DNA of 64,000 nt. It comes from Amycolatopsis acidiphila. Its GTDB lineage: Bacteria; Actinomycetota; Actinomycetes; Mycobacteriales; Pseudonocardiaceae. Location of the stretch: contig NZ_CP090063.1 in assembly GCF_021391495.1 (NCBI RefSeq), forward strand, positions 2,046,001 to 2,110,000, given 5' to 3'. The position numbers and the translations under genes were made by a program. Below, piece by piece: positions 12,415 through 21,152 of the stretch (positions are counted from its first letter, which is position 1; every line of letters starts with the position of its first letter). A model generated the notes under the pieces. It ran no database searches and was not told the origin of the DNA. It saw only the letters and a program-made list of their open reading frames with translations.

Positions 12415-12466
12415 GGAGCGTCCTCCCGTCGGCAGATTAGCTGCCCGGAGCGCGCCGTTCAAGGTG

Positions 12467-12567
12467 CTAATACGTATTAGTGCTGTGCCCCGGTCGGACC
12501 GGACAGGAACCGGCCCTTTTCTTGACTTCCGCTCGCGCGTCGCTGAGCCTCTGCTAATCCGCATTAG
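12467..12567. promoter_or_regulatory. Paired LacI-type operators and promoter of the catabolic operon
   Basis: Two palindromes, CTAATACGTATTAG (12467-12480) and CTAATCCGCATTAG (12554-12567), share the form CTAATnCGnATTAG with the central CG typical of LacI-family operators. Their starts are 87 bp apart, suitable for a DNA loop. TTGACT at 12532-12537 is a good -35; with a 17-bp spacer its -10 would fall at 12555-12560, inside the second operator, so binding there would block RNA polymerase. The LacI gene starts 18 bp further on. Confidence 0.75.
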
Positions 12568-12585
12568 CGACGAGGAGGTGCGGAG

Positions 12586-13587
12586 TTGGCAGCGCGAGGC
12601 AGGATGCCGAGGCAGGCGGACATCGCCCGGATCGCGGGGGTGTCCCAGGCGACCGTGTCCGTCGTGCTCGGCGGGAACAGCGCCGTGCGGATGGCCGAGT
12701 CGACCCGGCGCCGGGTGCTGGAGGTCGCCGAACAGCTGGGCTACGTGCCGCACCCCGTGGCGACGCGGCTGGCGTCGGCGCGGTCGAACCTGCTCGGGCT
12801 CTACACCTTCCGCGCCACGTTCCCGACCGACGTCGCCGACTCCTACTACCCGATCCTGGTCGGCGTCGAGGAGGAGGCCGCCGCGCTGGGGCAGGACCTC
12901 ATCCTGTTCACCGGCACGAGTGGTCCCGGCGCCTCCCACGAGGCCGCCATCCGCCGCACCCGGATGGCCGACGGCTGCCTCTTCTTCGGCAGGCACGTGC
13001 CCGAGGAACCCGTCGCGCGGCTGGTCGACTCCGGGTTCCCGCTCGTCTACATCGGCCGCCGCGCCGAGCTGGACGGGCGGATCCCCTACGTCGGCGCCGA
13101 CTACGTCAGCGCGTCGGCCGAGGTGCTCACCCGGCTGAAAGGGCTGGGACACCGCGAGATCCGCTACGTCCGCGAGTCCGACGAGGCGCCCTCGTCCACC
13201 GACCGGCAGCGTGGCGTGCTGGAGGCCGCGCCGGAGACGACGGTCGTCCGCATCGACGGCCCCGAACTGGACCCCGGCACGGTGCGTGCCTGGGTTCGCG
13301 ACGGCGTCACCGCGGTCGTCGTCGAGGGAACCGACACCGGCGCCGCGTACACCGCCGTGCGCAAGGCGATCGACGCCGCCAGACTGTCCACACCGGACGA
13401 TCTCTCGCTGGCCGTGCTCGGCGGTCCGCCGGAGGTGAGCGGTTTCGCGGTGCCGATGCGGGAGATGGGCCGTCGCGCGGTGCGCCTGCTCGTCGACCTC
13501 GTGACCGAGCGGCAGACCACACCACAGCAGCTGCTGTGGTGCCCACCGGTGGCCGGCTCGACCGTTGGCGCACCACGAACCCGTTAG
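12586..13587 (+). CDS. LacI family transcriptional regulator, first gene of the hydantoinase-type operon
   Basis: 333 residues. The N-terminal HTH reads RQADIARIAGVSQATVSVVLGG, followed by a hinge region (GYVPHPVATRLASARSNLLG) and a periplasmic-binding-protein-like sensor domain to the end. TTG 12586 is the likely start because GAGGAGG lies 7 nt upstream; an ATG six codons in lacks such a site. It is preceded by two matching operators, so it is probably autoregulated. Only 8 bp separate it from the FAD oxidoreductase gene, so regulator and enzymes are transcribed together. The inducer is unknown, presumably the operon substrate or an intermediate. Confidence 0.86.
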   Translation: MAARGRMPRQADIARIAGVSQATVSVVLGGNSAVRMAESTRRRVLEVAEQLGYVPHPVATRLASARSNLLGLYTFRATFPTDVADSYYPILVGVEEEAAALGQDLILFTGTSGPGASHEAAIRRTRMADGCLFFGRHVPEEPVARLVDSGFPLVYIGRRAELDGRIPYVGADYVSASAEVLTRLKGLGHREIRYVRESDEAPSSTDRQRGVLEAAPETTVVRIDGPELDPGTVRAWVRDGVTAVVVEGTDTGAAYTAVRKAIDAARLSTPDDLSLAVLGGPPEVSGFAVPMREMGRRAVRLLVDLVTERQTTPQQLLWCPPVAGSTVGAPRTR

Positions 13588-13595
13588 GACGGAGC

Positions 13596-15215
13596 ATGCC
13601 TGAACTCGACACCGAGATCCTCGTCGTGGGTGGAGGCGTCGGCGGCGTGGCCGCCGCGCTGGCCGCCGCTCGCGCGGGCCATCGGGTCGTGCTGACCGAG
13701 GAGACCGACTGGCTCGGCGGGCAGTTCACCGCCCAGGCGGTGCCCCCGGACGAGAACCCGTGGATCGAGCGCTTCGGCGGCACCGCGACCTACCGGCAGG
13801 TGCGCGAGGGGATCCGCGGCTACTACCGCCGCAACTACCCACTGCGCGCGGAGGCCGCCCGGCTGACCGACCTCAACCCGGGCGCCGGGCGGGTCAGCAA
13901 GCTGTGCCACGAGCCGCGCGTCGCGCTCGCGGTGCTGGAGGAGATGCTCGCGCCGCACCGCGCCGCCGGGCGGATCACCGTGCTGCTCGAACACCGGCCG
14001 GTGGCCGTGGACGTCACCGGGGACCGGGTGGACGCCGTCACCGTCGAGAAGGCCGGGGAGCGCACGACGATCCGGGGCGGCTACGTGCTCGACGCGACCG
14101 AGAACGGGGACCTGCTGCCGATGGCGGGGGCCGAGTTCGCCGTCGGCGCCGAGTCGCGCGACGAGTACGGCGAACCGCACGCACCCGAGCAGGCGGACCC
14201 GGGCAACCTGCAGGGCATCACCTACTGCTTCGCGGTCTCGCACCACGCCGGGCAGCAGCACGGGATCGACCGGCCCGCGATGTACGACTTCTGGCACTCC
14301 TACCGGCCGGACTTCTGGCCGGGCCCACTGCTCGGGTTCCTCGCGCCGGACCCGCGCAGCCTCGAAGCGCACGAGCGGACCTTCGACCCCAACCCGGACG
14401 CGGACCCGCTCGCGATCACCGCCGACCAGAGCGCGGACGCGGGCGACAAGGAGCTGTGGGGCTTCCGCCGCATCCTCGCGCGCGGCCTGCACCAGCCGGG
14501 CGCGTTCGAGTCGGACATCACCCTGGTGAACTGGCCGCTCAACGACTACTGGCTGCGGCCCGCGCTGGAGATCGACGGCATCGCGGGTCCCGACGACGTG
14601 GCACGCGCGCACTACGAGGCCAAGCAGCTGTCGCTCTCGGTGCTCTACTGGCTGCAGACGGAGGCGCCGCGGCTCGACGGCGGCACCGGCTTCCCGGGCC
14701 TGAAGCTGCGCCCGGACGTCGTCGGCACGGCGGACGGGCTCGCGAAGTCCGCGTACGTCAGGGAATCCCGGCGCATCCGCGCGGTCACCACCGTGACCGA
14801 GCACGACGTGTCGCTGGACATCCTCGGCCCGACCGGGCGGAAGTTCCACCCGGACTCGGTGGGGGTCGGCAGCTACCGCATCGACCTGCACCCGTCCACG
14901 TCCGGCGACAACTACGTCGACATCGCGAGCGTGCCGTTCGAGATCCCGCTCGGCGCGCTGCTGCCGCGGCGGGTGCGGAACCTGTTGGCCGCCGCGAAGA
15001 ACATCGGCACGACGCACATCACCAACGGGTGTTACCGGCTGCACCCGGTGGAGTGGAACATCGGCGAGGTCGCGGGCCACCTCGCCGGGTTCGCGCTGCG
15101 GCGCGGCAGCGAACCGCACCAGGTCCGCGAGAACGACAAGCTCTTCGAGGAGTTCGGCCGGGTCCTGGACCAGGCCGGCGTCGAGCGCCACTGGCCCGAG
15201 GTCCGCGGCTACTAG
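13596..15215 (+). CDS. FAD-dependent oxidoreductase
   Basis: 539 residues. A Rossmann FAD-binding motif opens the protein (EILVVGGGVGGVAAALAAARAGHRVVLTEE), followed by DWLGGQFTAQ, typical of the FAD_oxidored/PF12831 class. A further FAD contact lies near the C-terminus (LLAAAKNIGTTHITNGCYRLHPVEWNIG). No membrane segment or signal peptide is visible. The start is ATG 13596 with GGACGGAG upstream. It lies between the LacI gene and a hydantoinase-type gene, suggesting that it oxidises a cyclic or amide substrate before ring opening. The exact reaction cannot be deduced. Confidence 0.75.
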   Translation: MPELDTEILVVGGGVGGVAAALAAARAGHRVVLTEETDWLGGQFTAQAVPPDENPWIERFGGTATYRQVREGIRGYYRRNYPLRAEAARLTDLNPGAGRVSKLCHEPRVALAVLEEMLAPHRAAGRITVLLEHRPVAVDVTGDRVDAVTVEKAGERTTIRGGYVLDATENGDLLPMAGAEFAVGAESRDEYGEPHAPEQADPGNLQGITYCFAVSHHAGQQHGIDRPAMYDFWHSYRPDFWPGPLLGFLAPDPRSLEAHERTFDPNPDADPLAITADQSADAGDKELWGFRRILARGLHQPGAFESDITLVNWPLNDYWLRPALEIDGIAGPDDVARAHYEAKQLSLSVLYWLQTEAPRLDGGTGFPGLKLRPDVVGTADGLAKSAYVRESRRIRAVTTVTEHDVSLDILGPTGRKFHPDSVGVGSYRIDLHPSTSGDNYVDIASVPFEIPLGALLPRRVRNLLAAAKNIGTTHITNGCYRLHPVEWNIGEVAGHLAGFALRRGSEPHQVRENDKLFEEFGRVLDQAGVERHWPEVRGY

Positions 15216-15239
15216 AACCCACCAACTGGAGGTGTGGCA

Positions 15240-17390
15240 ATGACGCAACATCCCCCCAGACATGTCCGGATCGGCATCGATGTCGGCGGCACGTTCACCG
15301 ATGCCGTCGTCGTCGACGCCCGGTCCTTCGAGCTGCTCGGCCAGGTCAAGGTCCCGACGAGCCACGACCACGCGGACGGTGTCGCGCACGGCATCCTGGA
15401 GGCGCTGGAAAAGCTCCAGGCCGACGTCGGCATCGGCGCGCGGGACGTGTCCTTCCTCGCGCACGGCACGACGCAGGCCACCAACGCCCTGCTCGAAGGA
15501 GACGTCGCGACCGTCGGCATCGCCGGGATCGGCGCCGGGTTCGACGGGTTCGCCACGCGGCGGCTCACGGCACTCGGCAAGCTCGAGCTGGCGCCTGGCC
15601 GACGCCTGCCGATCCGGTACGCGGCGGTGCGCGACGCGAGCGACCCGGTCGCGGTCAAGGAGGCGCTCGCGCGGCTGCGCGCAGAGGGCGCGGAGGTGAT
15701 CGTCGCCGTCGAACCGTTCAGTGTGGACGATCCCGAAGGCGAGCAAGCCGTCCTGGACGCCGCGCGCGAACAAGGTCTGCTCGGCACCTCCACGCACGAG
15801 ATCACCAGCCTCTACGGGCTGACGAAGCGGGCACGCACAGCGGTGCTCAACGCGGGCATCATGCCGCGCATGGTCTCCACCGCCGACCTCGTGGAGGCCA
15901 GCGTCCAGCGCGCCGGGATCACCGCGCCGCTGATGGTCATGCGCGGCGACGGCGGCGTCATGTCGTTGCCGGAGATGCGGCGGCGGCCGTTGCTGACAGC
16001 GCTTTCCGGCCCGGCGGCGGGCGTCGCGGGCGCACTGATGGGGGAGAAGCTCAGCGAAGGGGTCTTCCTGGAGACCGGCGGCACCTCGACCGACATCAGC
16101 GTCATCCGGCGCGGCCGGGTCCAGGTGCGGCACGCGCATCTCGCCGGCCGCGAGACGTACCTGCCCGCGCTCGACGTGCGGACCGTCGGCATCGGCGGCG
16201 GCTCGCTCATCCGGTTCTCCGGCCGCGCGGTGACCGACGTCGGCCCGCGCAGCGCGCACATCGCCGGCCTCGCGTACGCGTGCTTCGCCCCCGCGTCGGC
16301 CCTCACCGACGCGAAGCTGGTCACGATCTCGCCGCGTCCCGACGACCCCGCGGACTACGTCGCGCTCGAAGCGCCCGACGGCACCCGCTACGCGCTCACA
16401 TTGACCTGTGCGGCGAACGCCCTCGGCATCGTGCCGGCCGGTTCCTACGCGCGGAGCGAGCCGGAGTCCGCGCGGCTCGCCGTGCAGCCGCTCGCCCAGG
16501 CGCTCGCCGTCCCGGTGGAGGAAGCCGCCAGGACCGTGCTGCGGCAGGCGATCAAGCCGGTGCGGGACGTGGTCGACGAGCTGGCCCGCGAGTACCAACT
16601 CGACCACCTGACGCTCGTCGGCGGCGGTGGCGGAGCGGCGGCCGTGACGCCGTTCCTGGGCGAGGAAGCCGAGCAGGACTGGCGGATCGCCGCGCACAGC
16701 GAGGTGATCAGCCCGCTCGGCGCGGCACTCGCGCTGGTGCGGGAGTCGGTGGAGCGGATCGTGCCCGGTCCGTCCAATGCGGACATCCTCGCCGCACGGG
16801 CCGAAGCCGAGGCCGCGGTGATCGCGCAGGGCGCGGACCCGTCCGGTGTCGAGGTCGACGTGACGGTCGACCCGCGGCGCAACCTCATCCGCGCCATCGC
16901 CACGGGCGCGACCGAGCTGCGTACGAAGGACCGTGCGTCCACAGTGGACGAAGGCGTGGTGCGCGGCGAAGTGGCACGCAGCATCGGCGTCCCGGTGGCC
17001 GAGGTCGAGGAGCTGGCCGCGGCGGGGCAGCACCGGGTGTTCGGCGCCCGGGCCAGGCGCAAGGGGCCGCTCGGCAGGTTCGCCGCGCCGGTGCGGTACG
17101 TCCGGGTGGTGGACGGCGAAGGCGTGATCCGCCTGCACAGCACGGGCGCCGCGGTCGAGCAGACCGATGTCGCGTCCGCGCAGAGCCGTCTCGCGACGTT
17201 GGTCGACCAGCACACCCATTACGGCGACGGCGGTTCGCGCGCGCCCGCGCTGTGGCTGCTCGCCGGGCCGAAGATCGCGGACCTGTCCGGGGTCCTCGAC
17301 CGGGACCAGCTGGTCGCCCTGATCGGCGCCGAGCTCAAGACGCGGGCACCGGCGGAACCGGTCGTCGCGATCCTGGAGGACCGGAAATGA
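15240..17390 (+). CDS. Hydantoinase/oxoprolinase family protein (HyuA-like)
   Basis: 716 residues. The N-terminal RIGIDVGGTFTDAVVVD is the ASKHA-fold phosphate-binding motif of HyuA/OplA proteins. Further motifs are FLAHGTTQATNALLEG, LSGPAAGVAGAL, LETGGTSTDISVI and TVGIGGGSLIRF. Relatives couple ATP hydrolysis to opening of hydantoins or 5-oxoproline, or act in acetone and acetophenone carboxylases. No HyuB partner is present here, which is unusual because many relatives need one. GGAGGTG precedes ATG 15240. The stop overlaps the next gene by ATGA. Substrate unknown; an N-heterocyclic lactam or imide is plausible. Confidence 0.82.
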   Translation: MTQHPPRHVRIGIDVGGTFTDAVVVDARSFELLGQVKVPTSHDHADGVAHGILEALEKLQADVGIGARDVSFLAHGTTQATNALLEGDVATVGIAGIGAGFDGFATRRLTALGKLELAPGRRLPIRYAAVRDASDPVAVKEALARLRAEGAEVIVAVEPFSVDDPEGEQAVLDAAREQGLLGTSTHEITSLYGLTKRARTAVLNAGIMPRMVSTADLVEASVQRAGITAPLMVMRGDGGVMSLPEMRRRPLLTALSGPAAGVAGALMGEKLSEGVFLETGGTSTDISVIRRGRVQVRHAHLAGRETYLPALDVRTVGIGGGSLIRFSGRAVTDVGPRSAHIAGLAYACFAPASALTDAKLVTISPRPDDPADYVALEAPDGTRYALTLTCAANALGIVPAGSYARSEPESARLAVQPLAQALAVPVEEAARTVLRQAIKPVRDVVDELAREYQLDHLTLVGGGGGAAAVTPFLGEEAEQDWRIAAHSEVISPLGAALALVRESVERIVPGPSNADILAARAEAEAAVIAQGADPSGVEVDVTVDPRRNLIRAIATGATELRTKDRASTVDEGVVRGEVARSIGVPVAEVEELAAAGQHRVFGARARRKGPLGRFAAPVRYVRVVDGEGVIRLHSTGAAVEQTDVASAQSRLATLVDQHTHYGDGGSRAPALWLLAGPKIADLSGVLDRDQLVALIGAELKTRAPAEPVVAILEDRK

Positions 17391-17899
17391 GCGACGTCGA
17401 TCTGGCCGCCGAGCTGCTGCGCGCCACGCCGATCCACGAGCGCCGCAGCGAGGAGCAGTTGCGGGCGTGGGCGGAGATCGCACTGTCCTATGGGGACGAG
17501 CTGGCCGACCGGCCGGACCCGGACGAGGAGATCGAGGTCGTCGAGCGCGACGGTGGCCTGCGCGAGGGCGAGCTGCTGCTCGCGGAGTACCAGAAATCCA
17601 CCGTGACGCTGTACCGGGACTCCTTGGCACGAGTGGAAAAGCTGGCCGCGCGCAAGGGGTGGGCGGTGTCGCGCGAAGGGCTGCGCAGGGCGGCCGTCGC
17701 GCACGAGCTCGTCCACCACCGCCTCGACGTCCGCGAGCTCAACCGCAGGCTCGGGCACACCGCCGCGCGGCTGGGCAGGCTGCGCATCCGGGGGCACGTC
17801 GCCGGGGCCGACGAGATCGTCGCGCACCGGTTCGCCCACCGCCGCAGCGGCCTCGGCGTCAGCCCGCTGCTGCTCACCACCGCACTCCGAGGAGACTGA
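17387..17899 (+). CDS. Small metallopeptidase-like protein with an HExxH motif
   Basis: 170 residues, no signal peptide. It contains HELVH at about 106-110, and about 33 residues later DEIVAHRFA (Glu about 143). The spacing and the ExxAxxFA pattern recall the third zinc ligand of ImmA/IrrE-type gluzincins. The preceding EYQKSTVTLYRDSL strand-like segment also fits such folds. I do not recognise a named family. It is translationally coupled to the hydantoinase-type gene (ATGA overlap) and followed by the permease after 2 bp, so it is an integral part of the operon. Possible roles: a hydrolase for the pathway, or a protease that acts on the regulator. Both are speculative. Confidence 0.6.
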   Translation: MSDVDLAAELLRATPIHERRSEEQLRAWAEIALSYGDELADRPDPDEEIEVVERDGGLREGELLLAEYQKSTVTLYRDSLARVEKLAARKGWAVSREGLRRAAVAHELVHHRLDVRELNRRLGHTAARLGRLRIRGHVAGADEIVAHRFAHRRSGLGVSPLLLTTALRGD

Positions 17900-17901
17900 C
17901 C

Positions 17902-19176
17902 ATGGGTATCGCGATTCTGGCCCTGATGGCCGTGGGCGTGGTCCTGATGCTGACCCGCGTGCTGCCCACCGCGTTCGCGCTCGTGCTGCTGGCACTGGGC
18001 ATCTCGATCCTGGCGCGGGCGCCGTGGACGGGGGACAAGAACAGCATCCTGACCGCGGTGCTGCAGAACGGCGCGCCCGCGCTCGCGTCGACGATGATCG
18101 CCGTGCTGCTCGGTTCGTGGCTGGGAGCGCTCCTGGACGAGACCGGCATCGCCGCGACGCTGGTCCGCAAGATCGTCGAGTTCGGCGGCGAGCGGCCGTC
18201 GGTGGTGGCGCTGGGCGTGTTCGCGGTGTCGATCCTGTGCGGCAGCATCACCGGCTCCGCACCCGCCGCGATGCTCGCCGGTGTGGTCGGCATCCCCGCG
18301 ATGAGCGCCGTCGGCGTCTCCCCGGTCGTCGCCGGTGGCACGGTGCTGATGGGCGTGGGCGCGGGGTCGCCGCTGGAGCTGCCGGTGTGGCAGTTCCTCG
18401 CCGACGCGCTCGGCTCGCCGGTGGCCGACGTCCGGTCGATCATGATCAAGCTGTTCCCGGTGGCGCTGGTCGTCGGCATCGCGTACGTCCTCATCGAGAC
18501 GCGCCGCAGGGGGGCGCGGCACGCGTGGGCGGTGAAGCTGGACCGGCCGAAGGCACGCGTCCGCCGCGGCGACGCGCCCTGGTACGCGCTGCTCACCCCG
18601 CTGGTGCCGATCGTGCTGGCGCTCGGGTTCGCCGTCCCGATCGTCCCGTCGCTGCTGGCGGGCCTGGTGTACGCGCTGGTCACGACGACCAAGTGGGGCG
18701 AGCTCAACGGGCGCGCACTGCGCTCGCTGTACAAGGGGTTCGAGGTGGCGGCGCCGCCGATCGCCCTGTTCGTCGCGATCGGCATGCTGCTCGCGGCGGT
18801 GAAGCTGCCGGGCGCGAAGAGCGCGCTGACGCCGATCGTGTCGGCGATCAGCCCGTCCGGCGCGGTGTGGTTCGTCGTGGTGTTCGCGATCCTCGTGCCG
18901 CTGTGCCTGTTCCGCGGGCCGCTCAACGTGTTCGGGCTCGGGGCCGGGGTCGCCGGGGTGCTGGTGACCGGCGGGATCTACCCGCTGCCGGCGGTGGTCG
19001 GGCTGATGGCCTCGTACAACCAGGTGTTCGGCGTGTCGGACCCGACGAGCACGCAGACCGTGTGGGCCGCGCAGTACGCCGGGGTGCGGCCCGAGAAGGC
19101 GATGATCTCGACGCTGCCGTACACCTGGGTCGTCGGGCTGGGCGGGATGATCCTGACCGCGGTGCTGTACCTGTGA
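17902..19176 (+). CDS. GntP/CitMHS-like membrane permease
   Basis: 424 residues with about 11-12 hydrophobic helices and few charged loops. It starts in the membrane (GIAILALMAVGVVLMLTRVLPTAFALVLLAL). Gly-rich re-entrant-looking segments such as CGSITGSAPAAMLAG and GVGAGSPLELPVW are characteristic of ion-transporter superfamily permeases that carry organic acids. A GGAGACTGACC site overlaps the previous stop. In this operon it is the obvious importer of the substrate. It overlaps the hydrolase start by GTGA. Exact substrate unknown. Confidence 0.72.
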   Translation: MGIAILALMAVGVVLMLTRVLPTAFALVLLALGISILARAPWTGDKNSILTAVLQNGAPALASTMIAVLLGSWLGALLDETGIAATLVRKIVEFGGERPSVVALGVFAVSILCGSITGSAPAAMLAGVVGIPAMSAVGVSPVVAGGTVLMGVGAGSPLELPVWQFLADALGSPVADVRSIMIKLFPVALVVGIAYVLIETRRRGARHAWAVKLDRPKARVRRGDAPWYALLTPLVPIVLALGFAVPIVPSLLAGLVYALVTTTKWGELNGRALRSLYKGFEVAAPPIALFVAIGMLLAAVKLPGAKSALTPIVSAISPSGAVWFVVVFAILVPLCLFRGPLNVFGLGAGVAGVLVTGGIYPLPAVVGLMASYNQVFGVSDPTSTQTVWAAQYAGVRPEKAMISTLPYTWVVGLGGMILTAVLYL

Positions 19177-19925
19177 TCACGACGTCCGACGGGCTGCGGC
19201 TGGAGTCGGCGTGGCAGCCCGGTGGCGGGCAGGCGGTGGTGCTGGCGCACGGCATCACCGCCGACCTCGACGAGCAGGGGCTGTTCGTGGCACTGGCCGG
19301 ACGCCTTGCCGCGGCGGGGTTTTCGGTGCTGCGGTTCTCGTTCCGCGGGCACGGCGGGAGCGACGGGGAGCCGCGGGACATGACGGTCGCGGGGGAGCGG
19401 CTGGACCTGCGGGCGGCGGTGGACTCGGTCGGGAGCCCGGTGTCGATCGTCGCGTCGAGCTTCGGCGCGGTGAGCACCGCGCTGTCGCTGGCGTCGCTGC
19501 CGGTGCGGTCGGTCGTGTTGTGGCAGCCGGTGCTGGACCTGCGCGGAACGTTCCTCTCGCCGTCGTTGCCGCGTGCCCGTGCGTTGTACGAGGACAAGAC
19601 TTCGTTGCGGGAGAAGGGTTTCCTCGACATCGAGGACAGGTTCGAGCTGGGTGCCGGGCTGTTCGAGGAGTTCGCGGTCCTGGACCCGCTGGCCGCGTTC
19701 CTGGCGAGTGACGTCCCGGCGTTGGTGGTGCACGGGGATGAGGACGAGCACATCTCGTACGAGGTGGCGCGCGAGGCGGCGGCGTGCAGAGGGCGAACGG
19801 ATTGGTACCCGGTGGCCGGGGATGGGCACGGATTCCGGCGGACGGGGTCGGAGGTGGTGGAGGTGACGGCGCGGTGGCTGGTGAGGCAGGCGGGTTTGCG
19901 CGACTCGACCACCTGCATGAGGTGA
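19173..19925 (+). CDS. Alpha/beta hydrolase
   Basis: 250 residues. The core order is visible: oxyanion segment LAHGITADLDEQGLFVALA, an RFSFRGHGGSDG strand-turn, a nucleophile elbow IVASSFGAVS (ASSFG rather than the usual GxSxG), acid region VVHGDEDEHISYE and catalytic His in GDGHGF. It resembles serine hydrolases that cleave esters, amides or C-C bonds. Start GTG 19173 overlaps the permease stop. As the last gene of the operon it probably hydrolyses a downstream intermediate; the non-standard elbow should be noted. Confidence 0.78.
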   Translation: MITTSDGLRLESAWQPGGGQAVVLAHGITADLDEQGLFVALAGRLAAAGFSVLRFSFRGHGGSDGEPRDMTVAGERLDLRAAVDSVGSPVSIVASSFGAVSTALSLASLPVRSVVLWQPVLDLRGTFLSPSLPRARALYEDKTSLREKGFLDIEDRFELGAGLFEEFAVLDPLAAFLASDVPALVVHGDEDEHISYEVAREAAACRGRTDWYPVAGDGHGFRRTGSEVVEVTARWLVRQAGLRDSTTCMR

Positions 19926-20258: not shown

Positions 20259-21152
20259 TCAACCCTGTCCGAAGCGTCGCCCGATCTCCGTCACTTCGGG
20301 CAACCCGGCGAACTCCGTGAACTCCCCGAACCCCGGCAGTCCCGCCACCGCGTTGATCGGCGTGCCGTCCTGCGCGATCTGCGCGTAGACCTCCCGCACG
20401 GCACGCGTCGCCGCGAGGAGGGCCGCGATCGGGCAGATCACGAGCCGGAAACCCAGCTCCCGCAGGCGTTCCATGCTCGTCGGCGGGGTCTTGCCACCCT
20501 CGGCCCAGTTGAACAGCAACGGAAAACCCTCGAACTCCGCCGCCACGTGTTCGATCTCCTCGTCGGTCTGCAGGGCCTCCACGAAGAGCGCGTCCGCACC
20601 CGCGTCCCGGTAGCGCCGCGCCCGGTCGATCGCCGCGTCGACGCCTTCCACCGCACGTGCGTCGGTGCGGGCGATCAGCACGAAATCGGGGTTCCGCCGC
20701 GCGGCGACGGCCGCCCTGATCTTGTCGACCGCCGTATCCACGGGTACCACCTGTTTACCCTCCAGGTGCCCGCACCGCTTCGGCGCCACCTGGTCCTCGA
20801 GATGGATGCCCGCCACCCCGGCTGCCTCGTACTCCCGCACCGTCCGGATCACGTTCAGCGCATTGCCGTAGCCGGTGTCGGCATCGGCGAGCACCGGCAG
20901 GTCGACCGCCGCCGTGATGTGCCGCGCGGTGTCGACCATCTCGGTCATCGTGAGCAGGCCGACGTCCGGCCGCCCGATCAGCGAGGCCGTCACCCCGAAC
21001 CCGGTCATGTACACGGCCGGGAACCCCGCCTCCTCGGCCAGCCGTGCGCTCAGCGCGTCGTACGCGCCCGGCGCCACGACCGGCTCACCTCCGGCCAGCA
21101 GCTCCCGCAGCCGCTTCGGTCCGTCGCATCCGTCACTGAGCAGGCTCGCCAC
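20259..21152 (-). CDS. Isocitrate lyase/PEP mutase family protein
   Basis: 297 residues, a complete TIM barrel. Recognisable points: PGAYDALSARLAEEAGFPAVYMTGFG, the Mg-binding DADTGYGN, LEDQVAPKRCGH (the KKCGH-type active-site loop with catalytic Cys), and RTDARAVEGVDAAI. The length fits methylisocitrate-lyase-like, oxaloacetate decarboxylase or carboxy-PEP mutase subfamilies; the substrate cannot be chosen from sequence alone. GTG 21152 is preceded by GGAGGG. It stands alone. Confidence 0.83.
   Translation of the reverse strand: MASLLSDGCDGPKRLRELLAGGEPVVAPGAYDALSARLAEEAGFPAVYMTGFGVTASLIGRPDVGLLTMTEMVDTARHITAAVDLPVLADADTGYGNALNVIRTVREYEAAGVAGIHLEDQVAPKRCGHLEGKQVVPVDTAVDKIRAAVAARRNPDFVLIARTDARAVEGVDAAIDRARRYRDAGADALFVEALQTDEEIEHVAAEFEGFPLLFNWAEGGKTPPTSMERLRELGFRLVICPIAALLAATRAVREVYAQIAQDGTPINAVAGLPGFGEFTEFAGLPEVTEIGRRFGQG

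What the first reader, a model, noticed from the sequence alone, without database searches (positions are those of the whole stretch)
12467..19925. LacI-controlled operon of FAD oxidoreductase, HyuA-like enzyme, HExxH protein, permease and hydrolase: a candidate undescribed catabolic system
Six genes are packed with 2-24 bp gaps or 4-bp overlaps behind a promoter flanked by two identical-type LacI palindromes. The set does not match hydantoin, allantoin, 5-oxoproline or caprolactam loci I know: there is no HyuB partner, and a metallopeptidase-like protein is translationally coupled. The logic fits import of an organic acid or amide, flavin oxidation, ATP-driven ring opening and hydrolysis.
Basis: partly seen in the sequence, partly recalled or inferred. 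Interest (0 to 1): 0.72.

Follow-up and report, generated by a model that had tools for sequence, protein, structure and literature searches.

The report
Sugar-type operon with HyuB-less HyuA
A soil-type actinobacterium carries a conserved, locally regulated set of genes, with relatives in gut bacteria and salt-loving archaea, that probably imports and breaks down an unidentified acidic sugar-derived compound using a HyuA-type enzyme that lacks its usual HyuB partner and sits beside a small zinc-peptidase-like protein instead.

Summary
LacI, FAD oxidoreductase (PF12831), HyuA-like protein, HExxH protein, permease and alpha/beta-hydrolase lie on one strand (gaps 8, 24, -4, 2, -4 bp) behind two palindromic operators with no other exact match in the 8.18-Mb genome. 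Permease, HyuA, HExxH and FAD enzyme recur under other regulators in unnamed Coriobacteriia-like genomes and on haloarchaeal plasmids. The hydrolase is accessory; a secreted GH43-like protein, not found in this genome, is a commoner companion in relatives. HyuB is absent: none in 8 of 8 Coriobacteriia-like genomes holding a HyuA of this clade, and the seven HyuB genes of this genome sit beside other HyuA genes. The HyuA clade lacks the GxxPGP adenosine motif. The HExxH protein models as an IrrE-like zincin and occurs in 26 of 27 testable loci of the main branch. Context suggests a carbohydrate-derived anion. Best reading: import, flavin oxidation, ATP-type activation, the zincin perhaps replacing HyuB. 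Chemistry and substrate are unproven. New variant of a known kind.

The parts
12466..12481 (.). operator 1 (palindrome GCTAATACGTATTAGT)
   Evidence: a pair of such sites upstream of lacI in the window and in 15 of 15 loci's actinomycetes, 77-91 bp apart, up to 3 mismatches
12553..12568 (.). operator 2 (palindrome GCTAATCCGCATTAGC)
12586..13587 (+). LacI-family repressor, first gene of its own operon (autoregulation inferred)
   Evidence: PF00356 46.6 bits over cut-off 27, PF13377
13596..15215 (+). FAD-dependent oxidoreductase, PF12831
   Evidence: E 8e-108; 71-87% identity in 17 actinomycete loci
15240..17390 (+). HyuA-like ASKHA-fold protein, 716 aa, no HyuB partner
   Evidence: PF01968/PF05378; model pLDDT 86.8 matching N-methylhydantoinase and acetone carboxylase beta; GxxPGP absent
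17387..17899 (+). HExxH protein, IrrE-like zincin; 4-bp overlap with HyuA
17702..17716 (+). HExxH zinc-site codons (H106-H110); proposed third ligand E143 at 17813-17815
17902..19176 (+). permease, ion-transporter (IT) superfamily-like
   Evidence: weak DcuC match 30.4 bits; family profile hits isethionate TRAP permease 9pym, E 3.2e-6
19173..19925 (+). alpha/beta-hydrolase, accessory member of the operon
   Evidence: PF12697; found in L010-L012, L018, L020, L028; not testable in L013-L017 and L023, whose stretches end too early

Best explanation
The segment is a LacI-repressed catabolic operon for one acidic, carbohydrate-derived compound. Steps, from shown to inferred: (1) LacI binds two dedicated operators and shuts off the operon including its own gene (operators shown, repression inferred); a sugar-like inducer releases it (inferred). 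(2) The IT-superfamily-like permease imports an anion (family shown by a profile match, substrate inferred). (3) The PF12831 flavoenzyme oxidises it (family shown, reaction inferred). (4) The HyuA-like ASKHA protein uses a nucleotide triphosphate to activate a carbonyl or carboxyl of the oxidised product, and the IrrE-like zincin, not HyuB, provides the metal site that hydrolyses the activated bond (inferred from fold, conserved residues and near-constant linkage). (5) The accessory hydrolase, and in relatives a secreted GH43-like protein, feed or trim the substrate (inferred).
For: Conserved order with dedicated operators. HExxH in 26 of 27 testable loci of the 28-member branch (25 by pattern; L078 by eye; tree), across actinomycetes, Coriobacteriia-like genomes and haloarchaea, with His-Glu-x-x-His and a third Glu kept at 20-29% identity. 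No HyuB in 8 of 8 Coriobacteriia-like genomes with a HyuA of this clade; all 7 HyuB of G000 beside other HyuA. In a characterised family member, caprolactamase, CapA binds ATP and CapB carries the metal site (PMC8453981 passages). Carbohydrate context: LacI, ROK-like and IclR regulators; secreted GH43-like protein in 14 of 15 loci; ROK kinase + NanE in L077, PfkB kinase in L079; LacI-FAD-GH43-like beside a solute-binding protein in L094.
Confidence: 0.4

Rival explanations
1. The HyuA-like protein has become a sugar- or sugar-acid kinase of the ASKHA fold: permease, flavin dehydrogenase and kinase make an ordinary sugar-acid pathway, and the zincin has a side role such as processing or regulation.
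For: No HyuB; canonical adenosine motif lost; sugar-type regulators and neighbours; Foldseek also lists ASKHA sugar kinases, from 5e-7.
Against: The fold matches N-methylhydantoinase, acetone and acetophenone carboxylase and caprolactamase far better (E 4e-29 to 1.5e-19) than any other ASKHA protein (7.8e-8 or weaker), though superpositions are loose (rmsd 8-14 A); near-constant zincin linkage unexplained; L077 and L079 already have a ROK or PfkB kinase nearby.
Confidence: 0.25
2. The HExxH protein is an ImmA/IrrE-type regulatory protease that inactivates a repressor or another protein, and HyuA needs no partner.
Confidence: 0.15
3. The HyuA-like clade is an ATP-driven accessory of a membrane transporter, not a catabolic enzyme: its neighbours are an IT-like permease in one branch and an FTR1-type iron permease in part of the other.
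For: FTR1 beside the Deinococcus copy (annotation) and PF03239 over cut-off in 4 of 4 proteins tested from L050-L053; IT-like permease in all 27 main-branch loci not cut by a contig end, and in L079 and L080.
Against: The branches differ at the GGTST(D/N) position; the Pseudomonadota copies L032 and L066 show no IT-like permease; PF12831 enzyme and sugar-type regulation are unexplained.
Confidence: 0.07
4. Ordinary hydantoinase/oxoprolinase operon whose HyuB is supplied from elsewhere in the genome.
For: G000 has seven HyuB genes.
Against: All seven are paired with another HyuA, and 8 of 8 Coriobacteriia-like genomes have none.
Confidence: 0.03

Closest known systems
ATP-dependent caprolactamase CapAB / 5-oxoprolinase / N-methylhydantoinase family (HyuA + HyuB)
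   Same: HyuA fold, DxGGTFTD phosphate-1 motif, GGTST core of phosphate-2
   Different: no HyuB, no GxxPGP adenosine motif, Glu for the phosphate-2 Asp, zincin neighbour, carbohydrate-type context
Acetone and acetophenone carboxylases
   Same: HyuA-like subunit; Foldseek E 5e-27 to 4e-24
   Different: no HyuB-type subunit in the loci; other carboxylase subunits were not sought
IrrE/PprI/ImmA (M78) metallopeptidases
   Same: zincin-like model, HExxH plus downstream Glu
   Different: below the Pfam M78 cut-off (no family for the window protein; 17.8 of 22 bits for L056); linked to HyuA rather than to a repressor
LacI-regulated carbohydrate operons of actinobacteria
   Same: LacI, paired operators, secreted GH43-like protein in most relatives
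   Different: IT-like permease and HyuA/zincin pair instead of the usual ABC importer and sugar kinase (usual layout recalled, from no call)

Membership tests
HyuA/HyuB ATP-dependent hydantoinase/oxoprolinase | HyuA domains PF05378 + PF01968 | tested here: met
   108.5 and 199.9 bits, over cut-offs
HyuA/HyuB ATP-dependent hydantoinase/oxoprolinase | phosphate-1 motif DxGGTFTD | tested here: met
   DVGGTFTD in the window; DVGGTFT invariant in the 34 rows of A7
HyuA/HyuB ATP-dependent hydantoinase/oxoprolinase | phosphate-2 motif D(M/V)GGT | tested here: not met
   ExGGT in the window and in the clade members printed except L056 and L057, which have D
HyuA/HyuB ATP-dependent hydantoinase/oxoprolinase | adenosine motif GxxPGP | tested here: not met
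   GPRSAH in its place in all clade members printed except L033, whose frame is broken; alignment to the PDB members breaks at 335 and resumes near 382; motif definition from PMC8453981
HyuA/HyuB ATP-dependent hydantoinase/oxoprolinase | HyuB partner (PF02538) | tested here: not met
   none in the relatives' loci by tblastn with one HyuB; none in the window and 0 of 8 Coriobacteriia-like genomes by family profile
HyuA/HyuB ATP-dependent hydantoinase/oxoprolinase | ATP-dependent amide hydrolysis | not testable with these tools
   needs enzyme assay
M78 (IrrE/ImmA) metallopeptidase | HExxH with distal Glu | tested here: met
   invariant in the 47 aligned sequences; L078, not in that alignment, has Asp for the Glu
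M78 (IrrE/ImmA) metallopeptidase | Pfam M78 match over cut-off | tested here: not met
   no family for the window protein; 17.8 of 22 bits for L056; L057 instead reaches Zincin_1 (22.6 of 22.4 bits); other weak, unrelated matches also appear
M78 (IrrE/ImmA) metallopeptidase | IrrE-like fold | tested here: inconclusive
LacI family repressor | LacI HTH plus periplasmic-binding-like domain over cut-off, with palindromic operators | tested here: met
FAD_oxidored (PF12831) | Pfam match over cut-off | tested here: met
   361.8 of 27 bits; also in relatives L045, L047, L055, L056, L058, L077, L078
DcuC C4-dicarboxylate transporter | NCBIfam DcuC_1 over curated cut-off | tested here: not met
   30.4 of 100 bits
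IT (ion transporter) superfamily | sequence-profile relation to a solved member | tested here: met
   9pym, E 3.2e-6, the only hit
GH43 (for the protein of relatives, not in the window) | PF04616 over cut-off | tested here: inconclusive
   25.9 and 24.4 of 32.2 bits here; precomputed PF04616 for part of the 120 homologues listed; L094 member instead touches GH32N, 21.6 of 22.1 bits

The most novel reading that the evidence does not exclude
A HyuB-independent branch of the HyuA superfamily in which a small IrrE-like zincin took over the metal-site role of HyuB, giving a two-protein ATP-driven amidohydrolase used in an unrecognised carbohydrate-acid pathway shared by soil actinobacteria, gut anaerobes and haloarchaea.
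Probability: 0.28. Interest if true: 0.78.

Novelty: new variant of a known kind. Interest (0 to 1): 0.6.

Why it matters
The HyuA clade is large: 7,877 protein clusters scored E <= 1e-100 out of 7,996 candidates scored, with a query that also held members of the second branch; named hits among the 120 listed include Gemmiger and Suilimivivens, gut bacteria by my own knowledge. Where named, its members are called 'hydantoinase' or 'hydantoinase/oxoprolinase', although the members studied here lack HyuB and a defining adenosine motif, so the annotation may mislead. A HyuA working with a zincin would be a new partnership for this enzyme class, and the single-locus operators make induction and substrate directly testable.

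Tried and rejected
Filing it as hydantoin, 5-oxoproline or caprolactam catabolism: rejected on HyuB and motif tests. Pyrimidine (Rut) pathway: suggested by the Pseudomonadota locus L032, where a luciferase-type monooxygenase, an isochorismatase and an alpha/beta-hydrolase follow the HyuA gene, but that copy belongs to the other branch, without FAD enzyme or HExxH hit. Sialic acid or ManNAc pathway: NanE and a ROK kinase follow the module in L077; AGE epimerases are annotated near it in L056 and L057; too thin to assert. DUF4127 in L078 and L094: no paper in the library. A viral-contig scan for Bacillota-type loci found none. No Bacillota chromosome context could be reached, so what may be the largest part of the clade was not inspected for neighbours. 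Two of the eight plasmid hits (H5, H7) were not opened. Promoter scan found nothing. PHROGs gave nothing useful for the HExxH protein.

Errors found and how they were handled: the FAD query was one base out of frame (13597 instead of 13596), so FAD rows are not used (replace them); the LacI query was out of frame and its LacI rows are not used (replace them). The home-made gene calls sometimes chose the antisense frame in high-GC DNA, so presence is taken from tblastn. L033, whose HyuA is read in two frames, was left out of the tree, and five of seven own-genome HyuA pieces (short, or of another type) were left out too. L091 is the same stretch as L030 and is not counted twice. The name 'Coriobacteriia-like' is my inference from genome size and gene content; no call names those genomes.
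Full report
WHAT IS THERE. Six genes run on the + strand from 12586 to 19925: LacI 12586-13587, FAD oxidoreductase 13596-15215, HyuA-like 15240-17390, HExxH protein 17387-17899, permease 17902-19176, alpha/beta-hydrolase 19173-19925. Gaps are 8, 24, -4, 2 and -4 bp. Pfam gives LacI + Peripla_BP_3, FAD_oxidored (8e-108), Hydant_A_N + Hydantoinase_A, nothing, nothing, Abhydrolase_6; NCBIfam gives no match over its cut-offs for any of the six. The genome (G000, 8.18 Mb, one contig, unnamed; the best HyuA relatives are Amycolatopsis) has nine further matches to PF01968 over the cut-off.

CONTROL REGION. Two palindromes, 12466-12481 and 12553-12568, match GCTAATNCGNATTAGC with at most one mismatch; shuffles give 0.02. 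In the whole genome CTAATNCGNATTAG without mismatch occurs only at these two places, and the reversed-pattern control gives 0. In 15 of 15 actinomycete loci (L018-L031, L033) a pair of such sites, each with at most 3 mismatches, stands upstream of lacI, 77-91 bp apart. These loci come from related genera and are not independent. Of three loci added later, L090 has a clear pair 90 bp apart; L044 and L054 have only poor or oddly spaced sites. The regulator is thus local and lies inside its own operon. No sigma-70-like promoter was recognised.

CONSERVATION. A scan of genome contigs with the HyuA protein gave 16 loci. The 15 actinomycete loci were compared by tblastn (one query of each was out of frame and its rows are not used). 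All 15 have LacI (in two pieces in L031), FAD enzyme and HyuA in this order; 14 also have HExxH and permease, and in the fifteenth (L023) the contig ends just after HyuA. L044, L054 and L090 repeat the full order. Among 100 genomes from genus to order, own genome included, 9 matched the HExxH protein, and the 8 others all have HyuA and permease on either side: patchy but together. The hydrolase is found in L010-L012, L018, L020 and L028; it cannot be judged in L013-L017 and L023, whose stretches end too early. A secreted, Tat-type GH43-like protein stands divergent to lacI in 14 of the 15 loci (not L018), also in L090, and downstream of the permease on the same strand in L044; L054 shows none in 18 kb. 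The window's own genome gave no match, while the same query matched 6 of 197 genomes of the class; 3 of those 6 hold the whole module, L094 has LacI and FAD enzyme without HyuA, and L092 and L093 have neither nearby.

OUTSIDE ACTINOMYCETES. In 396 actinobacterial genomes drawn evenly, 11 including the own genome had such a HyuA at E <= 1e-60; 8 of 197 in the class of G402 at E <= 1e-100; 2 of 397 in the phylum of L032, its own genome included; 8 plasmid records, from three haloarchaeal genera, Selenomonas, Deinococcus and Streptomyces, of which six were opened. I call the G402 class Coriobacteriia-like by inference; no call names it. Loci L045-L048 read ROK-like regulator (NagC/Mlc-like below cut-off), permease, HyuA, HExxH, FAD enzyme. 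Haloarchaeal plasmids L056-L058 have 'citrate transporter', HyuA and a HExxH protein with the same 4-bp overlap, a PF12831 enzyme (confirmed for L056 and L058) beside them and an IclR regulator nearby. The permeases of eight non-actinomycete loci align with the window's at 27-34% identity. A protein search with the HyuA family, both branches in the query, gave 7,877 clusters at E <= 1e-100 among 7,996 scored; named hits among the 120 listed include Gemmiger, Suilimivivens and haloarchaea.

TWO BRANCHES OF THE HyuA CLADE. A FastTree tree of 38 clade members, rooted by hand on two classical HyuA, has a branch of 28 (local support 0.946), all with GGTS(T/S)D at the second phosphate motif, all with a FAD enzyme in the locus, and with the permease in all 27 whose neighbourhood is not cut (PF12831 checked in window, L045, L047, L055, L056, L058, L077, L078). 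The other ten have Asn there and no FAD-enzyme match: six stand with FTR1-type iron permeases (annotated in Deinococcus L059; PF03239 over cut-off in L050-L053; L049 grouped with them by eye), two are Pseudomonadota (L032, L066) and two Coriobacteriia-like (L079, L080, which do have the permease). A pattern scan for HExxH followed by ExxA(H/N/M) in 39 loci hits 28, one protein each, just downstream of HyuA. In the 28-branch it hits 25; L078 has the protein with Asp for the Glu, by eye; L023 is cut; L055 (Selenomonas) has no hit: 26 of 27 testable. L033, outside the tree, is also hit. In the other branch 2 of 10 (L079, L080). In L078 the HExxH gene follows the FAD gene, three genes after HyuA. 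The pattern can miss divergent members, as it did L078.

NO HyuB. One HyuB from the own genome finds none in the relatives' loci by tblastn. By family profile, 0 of 8 Coriobacteriia-like genomes (completeness 98-99%) holding a HyuA of this clade (in G997 only of the Asn branch) have any HyuB, while 6 of 14 control genomes and G000 do. The seven HyuB of G000 lie next to seven other HyuA genes. So this HyuA does not need HyuB in those genomes.

THE HyuA PROTEIN. The model (pLDDT 86.8, pTM 0.85) matches N-methylhydantoinase, acetone and acetophenone carboxylase subunits and caprolactamase (E 4e-29 to 1.5e-19, 675-783 alignment columns, but TM about 0.5 and rmsd 8-14 A), with other ASKHA proteins at 7.8e-8 or weaker. 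The sequence profile breaks off against those structures at GPRSA-335 and resumes near 382: the canonical GxxPGP adenosine motif is replaced by GPRSAH, and the phosphate-2 Asp is Glu in all clade members printed but L056 and L057. In caprolactamase D11A and D295A cut product formation, and the partner CapB carries the metal site D41/H99/D102/H124 (passages of PMC8453981). Nucleotide use by this clade is therefore likely but not shown, and specificity may differ.

WHAT THE SUBSTRATE MIGHT BE. Regulators are LacI, ROK-like and IclR. Neighbours include ROK kinase + NanE (L077), a PfkB kinase (L079), a xylose-isomerase-like TIM barrel and a ketopantoate-reductase-type enzyme (L080) and DUF4127 (L078); each was seen in one locus. 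In L094 LacI, FAD enzyme (59% to the window's) and GH43-like protein stand with a solute-binding protein of a type common for sugars, next to DUF4127 and a sulfatase. The permease family relates to the isethionate TRAP permease. Together: an anionic carbohydrate derivative, possibly an amino-sugar acid. This is inference from context; no single neighbour is constant enough to name the compound.

MECHANISM AND RIVALS. Best reading (0.4): import, flavin oxidation, then ATP-type activation by HyuA with the zincin in the place of HyuB. The main rival (0.25) is a sugar-acid kinase. The zincin could instead be a regulatory protease (0.15). A transporter accessory role is possible but thin (0.07), and a trans-acting HyuB is nearly excluded (0.03).

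PRIOR KNOWLEDGE. Searches of the open-access library with combinations of hydantoinase, oxoprolinase, FAD-dependent oxidoreductase, LacI, operon, transporter, gut, gene cluster, ASKHA, sugar acid, N-acetylmannosamine and glycoside hydrolase, and with DUF4127, listed no paper whose title or abstract start describes such a module; only listings and starts of abstracts were seen, except passages of PMC8453981. Subscription papers and preprints are not held, so a description may exist.

Noticed in passing
L049-L053, L059 (Deinococcus taeanensis plasmid): HyuA relatives of the Asn branch stand in FTR1-type iron permease operons (PF03239 in L050-L053) with small lipoprotein-like and membrane-anchored proteins (by eye); what a HyuA-like protein does there is unexplained.
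   Followed up: partly
L078:11880-13349; L094:13027-14745: DUF4127 (PF13552) occurs inside a HyuA/HExxH operon of a Coriobacteriia-like genome and beside a LacI-FAD-GH43-like cluster; no paper on DUF4127 in the library.
   Followed up: partly
L019:6161-7180 and 14 further loci: A Tat-type secreted GH43-like protein, 835 homologues at E <= 0.001, shares the LacI control region in relatives but was not found in the window's genome.
   Followed up: partly
L032:9992-15245: In a proteobacterial MAG the Asn-type HyuA is followed by a luciferase-type monooxygenase, an isochorismatase and an alpha/beta-hydrolase that resemble a pyrimidine (Rut) cluster (naming by eye).
   Followed up: partly
window 20259-21152 (-): PEP mutase/isocitrate lyase-family protein (methylisocitrate lyase-like, below NCBIfam cut-off) convergent with the operon; not seen beside it in the actinomycete loci.
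   Followed up: no
L033 HyuA, FAD and permease; L031 LacI: Genes read in two frames or pieces in these assemblies, from sequencing error or decay; only described, L033 left out of the tree.
   Followed up: no
G000:C1:1301310 and 2803706: Two shorter HyuA-like genes (PF01968) with no HyuB beside them and with GPDSVGY where the clade has GPRSAHI: another HyuB-less type in the same genome.
   Followed up: no
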